Assembly (NCBI RefSeq): GCF_001884135.1
Contig: NZ_MAOC01000093.1
Location: forward strand, 62,001 to 126,000
Direction: 5' to 3'
DNA: 64,000 nt
Source: Bacillus nitratireducens
GTDB lineage: Bacteria; Bacillota; Bacilli; Bacillales; Bacillaceae_G
Shown: in pieces, positions 40,125 through 44,577 of the stretch
Numbering within the stretch: the stretch's first letter is position 1
Layout of the letters: every line of letters begins with the position of its first letter
Translations under genes and position numbers: made by a program
Notes under the pieces: generated by a model
What the model was told of the DNA's origin: nothing
The model's database searches: none
What the model saw: only the letters and a program-made list of their open reading frames with translations

Positions 40125-40448
40125 ATGAATTATATAGAAAATAACGGATTGTATTATCGTCATAATCATGGAGGGCACCATCATAATGGCGGACATAATC
40201 ACCATGGTGGACACAATCATTATGATCATCATCATCATCACGGTGGTGGATGGGGCTGGGGTGGCGGCTCGTGGGGTGGTGGATTTTTCCCAGGAAGTTT
40301 TGCTGGAGGCGTGTTAGGTGGGCTTACAGCTGGCGCATTAACGGGTGCAGCAGGTGGAGGTTACTATCCAGCACCGTACCCAGTAACATATCCAGCACCA
40401 TATCCAGTGCCATACCCGGGTTATCAGCAAATACCATATCAGTATTAG
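40125..40448 (+). CDS. His/Gly-rich, Pro/Tyr-tailed spore-coat-like protein
   Basis: The 107-aa protein has an N-terminal His/Asn/Gly repeat block (GGHHHNGGHNHHGG, then HHHHHGGGWGWGGG), a central GGFFPGSFAGGVLGGLTAGALTGAAGGG and a C-terminal tail of PYP repeats (PAPYPVTYPAPYPVPYP). Low complexity of this kind is typical of coat or exosporium components, and the His block could bind metal. I do not recognise a named family, so function is inferred from composition only. GGAGAGGGG precedes the ATG. The stop lies in a 46-bp palindrome. Confidence 0.75.
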   Translation: MNYIENNGLYYRHNHGGHHHNGGHNHHGGHNHYDHHHHHGGGWGWGGGSWGGGFFPGSFAGGVLGGLTAGALTGAAGGGYYPAPYPVTYPAPYPVPYPGYQQIPYQY

Positions 40449-41145: not shown

Positions 41146-42849
41146 ATGCTAGAACAAAGAGGTCATGCATTATATGACTCTTCATTGCAAGATTTAAAAT
41201 TAGCATTAGATGAGTCTTCAATTGTTGCTATTACAGACCGAAATGGTCGTATTACATATGTGAATGATAAATTTTGTGAAATCTCAAAATATAAAAGAGA
41301 AGAGTTAATAGGAAAAGATCACCGTATTTTAAATTCTGGATATCATCCGAAAGCATTTTTTCAAATTTTATGGAAGCGTATTTTGAGTGGGAAAGTTTGG
41401 ACGGGAGAAATTCGAAATCAAGCAAAAGATGGTACGTATTATTGGGTTAAAACAACAATTGTTCCATTTTTAAATGAAAAGGGAGAACCCTATCAATTTA
41501 TTGCAATTCGAAATGATATAAGTAGTAGGAAAGAAGCAGAACAAAGATTACGATTAAGCGAAAGTCGTTATAGGGAACTTGCTTATCACGATGCGTTAAC
41601 AAGTTTACCAAATCGTTTACAGTTAATTACGACTGTAAATAAGATGATTGCAGAGAAAATAGAGTTTGGCATGATTTACTTTGATTTAGATCGTTTTAAA
41701 TTAGTGAATGATACGTTAGGCCATATGCTAGGAGATTTACTTTTAAGTGAAGTCGCCTCACGCTTGCATTATGTGCTAGGAGAGAAAGATGTTCTAGCTA
41801 GGCTGGGTGGCGACGAATTTGTGTTGTTAACAAAAACTCATACACAAGATGAGATGCGGCAGTTAGCGACATCGGTATTGTCATGTTTTCAGGCACCATT
41901 TATGCTTGAAGGTCATGAAGTATATATTTCAGCTAGTCTAGGACTTTGTTCCTATCCGCAAGATGGAAAAGACGTTGAAACATTATTGAAAAATTCGGAT
42001 TTAGCCATGTATAGTGCGAAAGAGCAAGGAAGAAATGCGGCGTGCTTCTTTACAGATGAATTACGTGCGAAAATAAACCGTAGAATGAAAATAGAATTTG
42101 CTTTGCAAAAAGCAATTCGTGACGAAGAATTGAAAGTGGCATTACAGCCCATTATTGATTTGAAAACAATGAAATGTACTGGTATTGAGGCTTTAGTACG
42201 TTGTAACACAGAAGAAGGTCCTATTTCACCAAGTGAATTTATACCTGTAGCTGAAGAGTGTGGACTTATTATAAAACTAGGAGACTGGGTACTAGAAAAA
42301 TCATGCCGACTGTTTAAAACTTTACCAGAGTGTCAAGAGGGACTGAAGTTATCTGTTAATTTATCAATACAACAATTGATGCAAAAGCAATTTATTTTAT
42401 CCGTTCGTAGTATATTGAAGCGAACAGGATTTCCACCAAGTCGTTTAATATTAGAAATAACAGAAAGTATAGCTGTACGTCATTTTGATTATATTATTGC
42501 TACATTACAAGAATTAAGAAGTATGGGGATTTTAATCGCTTTAGACGATTTCGGAACGGGATATTCCTCATTATATTATTTAAAAAAACTCCCACTTGAT
42601 ATTGTAAAAATTGATCGTAATTTTATTCGTGAGTTTCATTATGATCATGCACAACCTGAGCGAACGATTGTAAAATCGGTTATTGAGATTGCCCATAGTT
42701 TAAATTTATTAGTGGTTGCTGAAGGGGTAGAAACGGTAGAACAAGAAAGTTTATTACAATTAATGGGTTGTGACTTTGTACAAGGTTTTTATTATGCGAA
42801 ACCGTTAGATGTAGGTGAGCTAAAAGGAAAGTTATTAACTGATTTTTAA
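41146..42849 (+). CDS. PAS-GGDEF-EAL cyclic-di-GMP signalling protein
   Basis: The protein of about 567 aa has a PAS domain with PAC segment (residues about 10-130, [24 protein letters not shown]), a GGDEF domain with an intact active site ([11 protein letters not shown]) and an EAL domain with EALVR and [10 protein letters not shown]. Both catalytic domains keep their signatures, so it could make and degrade c-di-GMP, or one domain could regulate the other. It has no membrane span, so it senses an internal cue. ATG 41146 is preferred to ATG 41140 for spacing from AAGGAGAG. Confidence 0.92.
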
Positions 42850-42886
42850 TAAAAAAAGAGAAGCGGAAAGCTTCTCTTTTTTTATT
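42848..42886. terminator. Bidirectional terminator
   Basis: AATAAAAAAAGAGAAGC and GCTTCTCTTTTTTTATT form a 17-bp perfect stem around GGAAA, between the converging GGDEF-EAL and permease genes. Confidence 0.92.
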
Positions 42887-44279
42887 ATTTTTTTTGTGAA
42901 TCTTTCATTAAAATTGGATAAAGAATAAGGCCTAATACAAACAACCCAATTCCTAAGAAGAACGTTTTTAAATCAGCAGTTCCTGTTTTAATAACCCAAA
43001 TGGAATATAAAAATGCTAGTGCAGTAATGATACCATCTTTTATTCGAGATCCAGGCATTATATCATACGTTTCCCCCGTAATAACTAATTTTAATTGATA
43101 CAAGGTAGAAACAAGATATGGGATTAAATATGCTAATGTCGCTACAACAATAGCGAAATTGTATGCTTCGGAAACAGTACCAGAAATCGTTGAAAATAAG
43201 AAAATTTGTGTCATTACATTTGTAATAAGTAATGATTTTGAAGGGCTTCCTTTTTTATTTGTTTTTCCGAAAAACTTAGGGAAAAGCCCATTTTTTGCTG
43301 CTTGGTAAGGTACTTCTGAGCTAACAACGATCCATCCTACAGTAGAGCCGAATAAAGATACGAGTGCAAGTAAGGCCATTATATAAGCGCCTTTACTACC
43401 AATTGCTAAATTTAATGCATCTACTAATGGCTTTTGAGATTCTTTTAAAACATCTTGCGGAAGAGCGCCCATTGTTAGTAGAGTAATTGCCATGTAAATA
43501 AGAAGAGCAATAATTAATCCGAAAATCGTTGCTTTTTTAACATCACGCTGAGATTTTGCACGATTAGAAAGCATAACTGCTGACTCAATACCGATGAACG
43601 CCCAAAGTGTTGCAATAGCCGCTGAATTTATTTGTCCGCCTAATGAAATGGCTTGTCCAGATTCATTCATAAATGTTTGACCATCCCCGAAATTAGAGGC
43701 ATTGAAAATGAATAATGTGATTACAATAAACATTGTAAATCCGATGATTTTTGCAATAGTAGCAAGAAGGTTCATATTTCCTGCTCTATCAATATTTTGA
43801 GAAAGAATATATTGAATTCCCCATAACATAAGGCTACATACGAGGAAAGTTAACCCTTTTCCAAGTTCTAGTGAAAATCCGTTTGTTGAAAAGAGAATTT
43901 GCTTACTTTGTAAAACTGGAAAGAATGTTGATAAATATCCAGCAAAGGAAATAATAACAGATGCTGTAGCAGCCCAGTTAGCAGCCCAATATCCCCATGC
44001 CATACTATATCCTGCAACTTTACCTGCCTTTTGGGATGTAAACATTGCTTGGGCATAACTTTGTGGTCCGGCTTTTAATTCTGGTTTTCGAATTGCTAAA
44101 TTTCCAAATACGAGTGCAATCATAAATACACCAAGACCTGTAATACTCCATGCAAGTGTAGAACCCATTGGACCTGATACGTGTGCTAAATTTGCTGGGA
44201 GCATAAATACGCCACCGCCAACCATATTCCCGATAACAAAAGCTGTTAAAACCCATAATCCCCATTTTTTCGTTTCCAT
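42885..44279 (-). CDS. APC-family amino acid permease behind a histidine leader (predicted histidine importer)
   Basis: The 464-aa, 12-span carrier has TM1 FVIGNMVGGGVFMLPANLA and the TM6 region TLWAFIGIESAVMLSNRAKSQRDVKKAT of the basic amino acid/polyamine antiporter branch (YvsH/ArcD type). By family alone the substrate would be a basic amino acid. The leader upstream encodes a peptide with four His codons and a terminator, so I infer that the substrate is histidine or a histidine-linked compound. AAAGGAG precedes ATG 44279. It is divergent from treR and ends in a shared terminator. Confidence 0.85.
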   Translation of the reverse strand: METKKWGLWVLTAFVIGNMVGGGVFMLPANLAHVSGPMGSTLAWSITGLGVFMIALVFGNLAIRKPELKAGPQSYAQAMFTSQKAGKVAGYSMAWGYWAANWAATASVIISFAGYLSTFFPVLQSKQILFSTNGFSLELGKGLTFLVCSLMLWGIQYILSQNIDRAGNMNLLATIAKIIGFTMFIVITLFIFNASNFGDGQTFMNESGQAISLGGQINSAAIATLWAFIGIESAVMLSNRAKSQRDVKKATIFGLIIALLIYMAITLLTMGALPQDVLKESQKPLVDALNLAIGSKGAYIMALLALVSLFGSTVGWIVVSSEVPYQAAKNGLFPKFFGKTNKKGSPSKSLLITNVMTQIFLFSTISGTVSEAYNFAIVVATLAYLIPYLVSTLYQLKLVITGETYDIMPGSRIKDGIITALAFLYSIWVIKTGTADLKTFFLGIGLFVLGLILYPILMKDSQKK

Positions 44280-44340: not shown

Positions 44341-44455
44341 ATAAAAAAAGAGCCATGTAGATAAAAAATACCTACATGGCTCTTCGCCTAACGTAGGTAC
44401 AACGGGAATAACCCTTGTACCTACGCGTAATTTTTCCGCTAGGTTTCAAGGGTTA
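44341..44455 (-). promoter_or_regulatory. Predicted ribosome-mediated transcription attenuator of the permease
   Basis: In minus-strand order the segments are: 1 (AACCCTTG, 44454-44447), 2 (CGTAGGTACAAGGGTT, 44425-44410), 3 (TTGTACCTACG, 44402-44392), 4 (AAGAGCCATGTAG, extended by GTA, 44384-44369) and 5 (CTACATGGCTCTT, 44360-44348, then T run). Possible pairings are 1:2 (8 bp), 2:3 (11 bp), 3:4 (TACCTAC with GTAGGTA, 7 bp) and 4:5 (13-bp terminator). They exclude each other in turn. A ribosome at the leader stop codon would cover segment 1 and favour 2:3 and 4:5 (termination). A ribosome stalled on the His codons would leave 1:2 and 3:4 (read-through). Confidence 0.75.
44348..44384 (-). terminator. 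Attenuator terminator
   Basis: AAGAGCCATGTAG and CTACATGGCTCTT form a perfect 13-bp stem. On the minus strand six T residues follow. Confidence 0.9.
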
Positions 44456-44512
44456 AGTATGATGATGATGTTTTTGTGCAAATGTAACTACAATTGTTGT
44501 ATAAGTAAGCAT
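44453..44512 (-). CDS. Leader peptide with four consecutive His codons
   Basis: A 19-codon ORF, MLTYTTIVVTFAQKHHHHT, starts at ATG 44512 behind GGGAG with 9-nt spacing. All four His codons are CAT and lie just before the stop. It sits between a promoter and a terminator ahead of the permease gene. This is the layout of ribosome-mediated attenuation leaders such as enterobacterial hisL. It is not a protein-coding gene in the usual sense. Confidence 0.75.
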   Translation of the reverse strand: MLTYTTIVVTFAQKHHHHT

Positions 44513-44548
44513 AGTTCTTTGCTCCCTTTCTCCTCTGATTTTGAAGTT

Positions 44549-44577
44549 AGTATACTACATGTTTTTTTGAATGAAAA
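44549..44577 (-). promoter_or_regulatory. Promoter of the leader-permease transcript
   Basis: On the minus strand TTTTCA (44577-44572), a 17-bp spacer and TATACT (44554-44549). The -10 is good and the -35 matches four of six bases. Confidence 0.55.

What the first reader, a model, noticed from the sequence alone, without database searches (positions are those of the whole stretch)
44341..44577. Histidine leader-peptide attenuator before an APC permease in a Bacillus
Seen: a promoter, a 19-codon leader ORF ending HHHHT with a spaced ribosome site, then five segments that can pair 1:2, 2:3, 3:4 or 4:5, the last being a 13-bp stem with a T run. The geometry works: a ribosome stalled on the His codons (44470-44459) would leave segment 1 (44454-44447) free, so 1:2 and 3:4 form and transcription continues. 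A ribosome at the stop codon (44455-44453) would cover segment 1, so 2:3 and the 4:5 terminator form. Known: Bacillus usually senses uncharged tRNA with T-boxes, and amino-acid-specific leader peptides of this kind are unusual in Firmicutes. Inference: the permease imports histidine and responds to histidyl-tRNA shortage.
Basis: partly seen in the sequence, partly recalled or inferred. Interest (0 to 1): 0.82.

Follow-up and report, generated by a model that had tools for sequence, protein, structure and literature searches.

The report
Histidine-sensing switch before a transporter
In front of an amino-acid transporter gene, probably of a Bacillus, there is an RNA switch predicted to let the gene be made only when the cell runs short of histidine; switches of this kind were already predicted for histidine-making genes of related bacteria, but its use on this transporter appears to be new.

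Summary
On the minus strand a promoter-like site, a 19-codon leader ORF (MLTYTTIVVTFAQKHHHHT*) and five mutually pairing segments ending in an intrinsic terminator precede an APC permease. The same element, with its His codons, precedes the orthologous permease in Ectobacillus panaciterrae and Bacillus sp. 165. Homologues lie before hisS-type, hisZ-like and hisD genes and a YuiF-like carrier in other Bacilli; 29 of 30 covariance-model hits at E <= 1e-5 have a His-run leader, and the alternative stems covary. Independent support for histidine: 41 of 48 permease orthologues carry, near the promoter, a match to the published operator of the histidine repressor HisR. The two other permease loci with this attenuator lack that site, and their genomes lack hisR.

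His leaders in bacilli were predicted in 2010 and 2022, so this is a new member of a known kind; the permease target and the HisR-to-attenuator replacement were not found in my literature searches. Nothing was tested at the bench.

The parts
44549..44577 (-). promoter-like site: TTTTCA (44577-44572), 17 nt, TATACT (44554-44549)
   Evidence: consensus match 9 of 12, not above chance for the region
44522..44534 (-). ribosome-binding purine stretch (AGGAGAAAGGGAG) of the leader ORF
   Evidence: sequence
44453..44512 (-). leader ORF MLTYTTIVVTFAQKHHHHT*
   Evidence: homologous leaders ending QLHHHT* in L053 and L024
44459..44470 (-). four consecutive CAT (His) codons
   Evidence: run of at least two His codons in 29 of 30 model hits at E <= 1e-5
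44437..44454 (-). segment 1, overlaps the stop codon; pairs with segment 2
44410..44427 (-). segment 2, pairs with 1 or 3
44391..44406 (-). segment 3, pairs with 2 or 4
44368..44384 (-). segment 4, pairs with 3 (antiterminator) or 5 (terminator)
44343..44363 (-). segment 5 and T run: 3' half of the intrinsic terminator
42885..44279 (-). APC-superfamily amino-acid permease, predicted histidine transporter
   Evidence: orthologues with HisR operator matches
42847..42887 (.). terminator-like hairpin after the permease gene

Best explanation
It is a translation-dependent transcription attenuator that senses charged tRNA-His and controls a histidine permease. With enough histidyl-tRNA the ribosome runs to the stop codon, where it covers segment 1; 2:3 then forms, freeing 4 for the 4:5 terminator, and transcription ends near 44343. 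When histidyl-tRNA is short the ribosome waits at the first His codons, leaving segment 1 bare; 1:2 forms as soon as segment 2 emerges and traps it, segment 3 is left to pair with 4, no terminator forms, and the permease is transcribed. Shown by computation: the ORF, the His run, the four stems, their covariation and conservation, the barriers. Inferred: ribosome positions, timing, read-through, the response to histidine, and histidine as the permease's substrate. The element is homologous to leaders before hisS-type genes, and in its lineage it appears to stand in for the repressor HisR.
For: Same element before the orthologous permease in Ectobacillus panaciterrae (L053, MFNVTLFAQLHHHT*) and Bacillus sp. 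165 (L024, MFNTTMFVQLHHHT*). 30 distinct genome hits at E <= 1e-5: 29 have a His-run leader; of the 25 that were not in the seed of the model that found them, 24 do. In alignment A5 (32 sequences, 28 distinct) stems 2:3 and 4:5 have 94.7% paired cells (shuffles 87.2, 0 of 500; slid partners 33-51%) and 64 cells changed on both sides (shuffles 17.1, 0 of 500). Stem 3:4 has 95.9% paired cells and 17 cells changed on both sides (shuffles 6.7, 0 of 500). Outer eight pairs of 1:2: 8 cells changed on both sides among six distinct rows (shuffles 2.5, 0 of 1000). All four hairpins fold in all 11 members of A4. The 5' arm of segment 1 begins 0-3 nt after the first base of the stop codon in all 29 group-I members scored (my script accepted -8 to +10). 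Downstream genes include histidine-tRNA ligase, HisZ-like, HisD and an antiporter-family carrier; all 18 of L107-L124 have HisS start motifs 182-244 nt on. HisR operator match before 43 of 55 permease loci, 41 of 48 without the lysine clade, against 18 and 19 of 2200 shuffled upstream regions. Of 21 permease-locus genomes searched 19 have hisR; the 2 without are those with the permease attenuator. Barriers 1:2 to 2:3 11.6 and 3:4 to 4:5 11.7 kcal/mol.
Against: The terminator fold is the minimum for every ribosome position tested. My stepwise folding simulation kept 1:2 while segments 3 and 4 emerged but jumped to the terminator at the last steps in both stalled cases; I think this comes from measuring the barrier from the starting structure, but did not prove it. 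For 3:4 the number of pairs with a change on both sides (2) and the number of further pair types do not exceed shuffles; the support rests on cells, which count related sequences. The models include the His codons, so finding them in hits is partly built in. Most permease orthologues have no His leader (4 of 55 do, and two of these, L005 and L013, have an unrelated one). Two of 7 members of the lysine clade also pass the HisR test. Loss of hisR is a family-wide trait (1 of 19 genomes has it), so the link with the attenuator is not many independent events. The permease is below the cut-off of its nearest NCBIfam families, whose names point to arginine/ornithine. No expression or transport data.
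Confidence: 0.86

Rival explanations
1. The same leader works with a different active step: in untranslated RNA segment 1 pairs with the leader's own ribosome site (AAGGG with CCCUU), so that translation as such, not only the His stall, sets the fold; the element would then report translation initiation as well as histidine.
For: The minimum fold of the whole leader pairs segment 1 with the purine stretch before the ORF. The complementarity is visible in the window, L053 and L024.
Against: Ribosome sites are purine-rich anyway, so the match may be incidental; the pairing was not counted across members. It does not explain the conserved His run.
Confidence: 0.12
2. The His run senses something other than charged tRNA-His, for example free histidine through nascent-peptide arrest, a metal bound by the His run, or general translational slowing.
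For: Arrest leaders exist in Firmicutes (recalled; PMC10314930 seen only in a listing). Short His runs can bind metals (recalled).
Against: Residues before the His run vary widely among members while the run is kept, unlike sequence-specific arrest peptides; several targets are histidine genes; orthologues carry HisR operator matches.
Confidence: 0.06
3. An ordinary terminator after a chance His-rich ORF, with no regulation.
For: Equilibrium folding favours the terminator at all ribosome positions tested; the promoter match is no better than chance.
Against: Covariation of mutually exclusive stems, conservation over species, recurrence before histidine genes, and rarity of such leaders by chance.
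Confidence: 0.02

Closest known systems
Histidine leader peptides before hisS* and hisZ in bacilli (PMC2965389, 2010; section 10 and passages read)
   Same: Short ORF with a His run before an intrinsic terminator in bacilli. The window leader matches, as DNA, one before a hisS-type gene (L062); hisZ-like leaders L068, L070, L072, L073 match model R1 weakly (28-31 bits).
   Different: Target here is an APC permease, which the parts read do not mention. The five-segment kinetic reading and the covariation counts are mine.
His attenuators of the his operon in the B. cereus group (PMC9413887, 2022; section 8 and passages read)
   Same: Leader peptide with three to five His codons in a row and attenuator, antiterminator and terminator hairpins, in lineages without HisR regulation of that operon.
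   Different: The attenuator rows seen list only his operons; transporters named are YuiF and HisXYZ. Sequences could not be compared: its alignments are in supplements, and no B. cereus-group genome came up here by name.
Enterobacterial His leader (Rfam RF00514)
   Same: Same principle: ribosome stalling at His codons decides between terminator and antiterminator.
   Different: No Rfam match in the window. Here the ribosome at the stop codon masks segment 1, and stalled and absent ribosomes should both give read-through; in the enterobacterial leader the stalled ribosome does the masking (recalled).
T-box leaders (RF00230)
   Same: Both answer to uncharged tRNA in Firmicutes.
   Different: No T-box in the window at gathering score.
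Leucine-rich attenuator peptide of Staphylococcus aureus ilv-leu (PMC5794164, passages read)
   Same: Amino-acid-rich leader peptide with a transcription terminator in a Firmicute, with mutational support.
   Different: Other amino acid and other genes; homology not tested.

Membership tests
His leader-peptide attenuators of bacilli (PMC2965389, PMC9413887) | short ORF with a run of His codons and a ribosome site | tested here: met
His leader-peptide attenuators of bacilli (PMC2965389, PMC9413887) | intrinsic terminator with a mutually exclusive antiterminator just after the ORF | tested here: met
His leader-peptide attenuators of bacilli (PMC2965389, PMC9413887) | sequence similarity to a leader of a hisS-type gene | tested here: met
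   DNA match to L062 before a PRK12420-type hisS (E 4.6e-5; gene over cut-off); 18 further hisS-type members at E <= 2.7e-9 with model R2
His leader-peptide attenuators of bacilli (PMC2965389, PMC9413887) | controls a histidine gene | tested here: inconclusive
   permease substrate untested; HisR operator matches before orthologues point to histidine
His leader-peptide attenuators of bacilli (PMC2965389, PMC9413887) | read-through rises on histidine shortage | not testable with these tools
   needs a reporter or RNA-seq
Rfam His leader RF00514 | match to the covariance model at gathering score | tested here: not met
   no match in 64 kb
T-box RF00230 | match to the covariance model at gathering score | tested here: not met
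Lysine riboswitch RF00168 | match before the permease at gathering score | tested here: not met
   found before 3 of 7 members of the distant clade and 5 of 6 further relatives
TIGR00905 / TIGR03810 basic amino-acid and arginine-ornithine antiporters | score above the curated cut-off | tested here: not met
   349.6 against 409.05, and 307.3 against 591 bits
APC superfamily (PF13520 AA_permease_2) | score above the gathering cut-off | tested here: met
   164.9 against 27 bits

The most novel reading that the evidence does not exclude
A five-segment, kinetically trapped His attenuator has spread as a cassette through Bacilli. After loss of the repressor HisR in one lineage it took over histidine uptake genes of two unrelated transporter families (this APC permease and a YuiF-like carrier). 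Its logic differs from the enterobacterial one: a ribosome that finishes the leader is the active agent and no translation means read-through, which would suit hosts in which RNA polymerase outruns the ribosome. The APC permease would be a third family of histidine transporter in the HisR/attenuator regulon.
Probability: 0.35. Interest if true: 0.65.

Novelty: new member of a known kind. Interest (0 to 1): 0.5.

Why it matters
It suggests histidine as the substrate of a widespread, vaguely annotated APC permease from two independent regulatory signals (HisR operators and His leaders), and shows one regulatory solution apparently replacing another on the same gene. It also offers a testable case of ribosome-dependent attenuation in bacilli, where transcription and translation are thought to be loosely coupled (for B. 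subtilis this is recalled; PMC7858274 passages discuss runaway transcription). It makes a distinctive prediction: knocking out the leader start codon should raise, not lower, expression.

Tried and rejected
Equilibrium folding with ribosome masks did not discriminate the two states. A stepwise co-transcriptional simulation was inconclusive at its last steps; barrier estimates between named hairpins were used instead. Plasmid and phage collections gave no match. Weak model hits set aside as chance terminators: L069, L071, L078, L082-L087, L089, L091, L092, L094, L096 (no family-like His leader on either strand); L102-L105 and L128 (hit strand only); L088, L090, L093 and L095 (only unlike His-containing ORFs). 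L077, L079 and L106 overlap the antisense of true members. L125 has the stems and a hisS-like start but no His leader and is kept as the one miss of 30. L056 and L057 were dropped from the permease set (26% identity). In one search the hairpin chosen for L062, L075 and L076 was 2:3 and L127 was mislocated; one search gives 1:2 for the first three and none for L127. L005/L013: possible translational attenuator, in which UCUUGU pairs with the permease ribosome site, but fold z-scores are -1.7 and +0.7, so it stays a lead. The first operator scan used a motif taken from the orthologues themselves; the published consensus was then used. The background (1 of 1003 windows) is largely coding DNA, so shuffled upstream regions were added. 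Two notebook remarks were wrong and are corrected here: L068, L070, L072 and L073 are sense-strand hits, and the lysine clade is not free of the HisR motif (L045 and L050 pass).

Full report
What is there. On the minus strand a promoter-like site (44577-44549), a ribosome site and a 19-codon ORF at 44512-44453, MLTYTTIVVTFAQKHHHHT*, precede an APC permease at 44279-42885. Between ORF and permease lie five segments. The four alternative hairpins are all strong: 1:2 -20.4, 2:3 -22.9, 3:4 -16.6, 4:5 -24.4 kcal/mol; the last is an intrinsic terminator of 16-17 pairs with a T run. The region is far more stable than shuffles (z -8.3 and -8.9). By my scan it is the only leader in the window with four His codons in a row, against none in 200 random windows. 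Rfam has no match in the window at gathering scores.

Conservation. A scan of genome contigs gave 57 loci with a relative of the permease; 55 were used. Two, Ectobacillus panaciterrae L053 and Bacillus sp. 165 L024, carry the same element with leaders ending QLHHHT*. A DNA search of 19 genomes of the family of L053 matched in 5: these two, L060 and L061 (before a 152-residue ORF without Pfam or NCBIfam match), and L062 (before a hisS-type gene). Covariance models R1 and R2 were run on 19 family genomes (R1), 397 order genomes each (R1, R2) and 398 class genomes (R2); in the last three only 8 or 9 candidates a genome were scored, so the counts are lower bounds. 29 have a leader with at least two His codons in a row shortly before its stop; L125 has none. 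Of the 25 not in the seed of the model that found them, 24 have it. Four hisZ-like members score lower (L068, L070, L072, L073; E 0.002-0.01 per genome, leaders), and L127 (E 1.3e-4) has the leader MSNKKLNCHHHRHHSHCVCTHWKNS.

Targets. Histidine-tRNA ligase follows L062 and L107 (over the NCBIfam cut-off) and L080 (cut by the locus end, 492 against 540 bits); HisD follows L081 (over the cut-off); HisZ-like proteins follow L068 and L126 (below the NCBIfam cut-off, 194.5 and 218.3 against 271.65, over Pfam's for tRNA-synt_His); an antiporter-family carrier that I read as YuiF-like (recalled) follows L075; an alpha/beta hydrolase starts some 160 nt after L074; L061 is followed by an unknown protein. 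All 18 of L107-L124 have HisS start motifs 182-244 nt after the match start.

Covariation. On the 11-member alignment A4 the terminator conformation has 92.2% paired cells and 21 cells changed on both sides (shuffles 7.4, 0 of 500); on the 32-member A5 (28 distinct rows) 94.7% and 64 cells (17.1, 0 of 500). The antiterminator stem 3:4 has 97.1% and 6 cells on A4 (2.2, 1 of 500) and 95.9% and 17 cells on A5 (6.7, 0 of 500); its number of pairs with a change on both sides, 2 each time, and its further pair types do not exceed shuffles. For 1:2 the outer eight pairs have 8 cells changed on both sides among six distinct rows (2.5, 0 of 1000); these stems were picked as complementary, so that all 48 cells pair is built in. 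Changes are linked across segments: GUAGG/CCUAC in the window becomes GCAGG/CCUGC in L060 and L061 in segments 2, 3, 4 and 5, as expected if one strand must pair in turn with two others. The alignments were fitted to the terminator structure, which favours it but not 3:4, and shuffles ignore kinship.

Mechanism. The 5' arm of segment 1 begins 0-3 nt after the first base of the stop codon in all 29 group-I members scored (offsets from -8 to +10 were allowed). Taking a ribosome to reach about 15 nt beyond its P site (recalled), a stall at the first His codons leaves segment 1 free and a ribosome at the stop covers it. Equilibrium folding gives the terminator in every case, for six members and four positions, so the switch has to be kinetic. 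1:2 is nearly as stable as 2:3 and is made first; turning 1:2 into 2:3 costs 11.6 kcal/mol and 3:4 into 4:5 costs 11.7, while free nucleation costs 2.4-3.1. At an assumed attempt rate of 1e6-1e7 per second that is below 0.1 per second, slow against the second or two (my estimate) that the polymerase needs. A stepwise simulation kept 1:2 through emergence of segments 3 and 4 in the stalled cases and made 2:3 when segment 1 was masked, but ended in the terminator in the stalled cases too and in a structure without a full terminator in the masked case at its last step, so it is not counted as proof. A consequence of the model is that an absent ribosome should behave like a stalled one; in the enterobacterial his leader the stalled ribosome does the masking (recalled).

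Why histidine. Most permease orthologues lack the leader but share a motif near the promoter. It matches the HisR operator consensus cacTTTAnnnnnnTAAAgtg printed in PMC9413887: 43 of 55 loci pass core plus 11 of 14 positions, against 1 of 1003 other windows of the same loci and 18 and 19 of 2200 shuffled upstream regions. Without the lysine clade it is 41 of 48 (L054, too short for the tree, counted in); the seven misses are L053 and L024, which have the attenuator, near misses L001, L002 and L004, and L036 and L048. In the lysine clade 2 of 7 pass (L045, L050). The orthologues are kin, so these are not independent sites. The hisR family TIGR02531 is found in 23 of 28 genomes (30 loci given, L001 not held, two in one genome); the five without are those of L053, L024, L060, L061 and L062. 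In the family of L053 1 of 19 genomes has it, so the loss is a lineage trait. The window has no such site (8 of 14), and its genome is not held. Orthologues L005 and L013 have the site and also an unrelated His-rich leader without a terminator in the leader (HHHRYHHHSC*, HHHQNHHHSC*); of 60 genomes searched in that genus four matched, two of them only over 29 and 43 nt and not looked at further. The more distant permease clade is set apart (98/93, bootstrap not fully settled); lysine riboswitches stand before 3 of its 7 members and before 5 of 6 further relatives at 52-59% identity. Of the 55 loci 40 were scanned with Rfam. The closest solved structures by sequence are arginine/agmatine antiporters AdiC, which says little on substrate.

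Known or new. PMC2965389 (section 10 and passages) reported His leader peptides before hisS* and hisZ in bacilli; PMC9413887 (section 8 and passages) reported them before his operons in six B. cereus-group species and other Firmicutes. The element belongs with these. Neither the parts read nor my searches show an APC permease under such a leader or under HisR; supplements could not be read and most subscription papers are not held. I therefore file it as a new member of a known kind, with the permease target and the apparent replacement of HisR as the new points.

Noticed in passing
L005:2340-2510 and L013:2330-2510: A different His-rich leader (HHHRYHHHSC*, HHHQNHHHSC*) before the orthologous permease, without a terminator; the last codons UCUUGU can pair with ACAAGA at the permease ribosome site, suggesting a His-specific translational attenuator.
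   Followed up: partly
upstream of the permease in 43 of 55 loci, e.g. L020, L029, L041: HisR-operator-like site near the promoter of the APC permease; adds this transporter to the likely HisR regulon.
   Followed up: yes
L133, L135, L136, L137, L138, L043, L044, L050: Paralogues of the permease behind lysine riboswitches, marking a lysine-transport branch of the family.
   Followed up: partly
L060:1502-1621 (-) and L061:1512-1631 (+): Full His attenuator before a 152-residue ORF (measured in L061) with no Pfam or NCBIfam match; a possible new histidine-related gene.
   Followed up: partly
L074:1501-1620: His attenuator followed about 160 nt later by an alpha/beta hydrolase gene; the true target may be lost or unrecognised.
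   Followed up: partly
L125:1501-1632: Stems of the family before a hisS-like ORF but no His leader: a decayed or altered copy.
   Followed up: no
window 40125-40448 (+): 107-residue ORF very rich in His and Gly.
   Followed up: no
window 44522-44534 and 44447-44454 (-): Leader ribosome site (AAGGG) is complementary to segment 1 (CCCUU) and pairs with it in the minimum fold; possible extra control layer.
   Followed up: no
L018:1793-2366: Group II intron pieces upstream of a permease orthologue.
   Followed up: no
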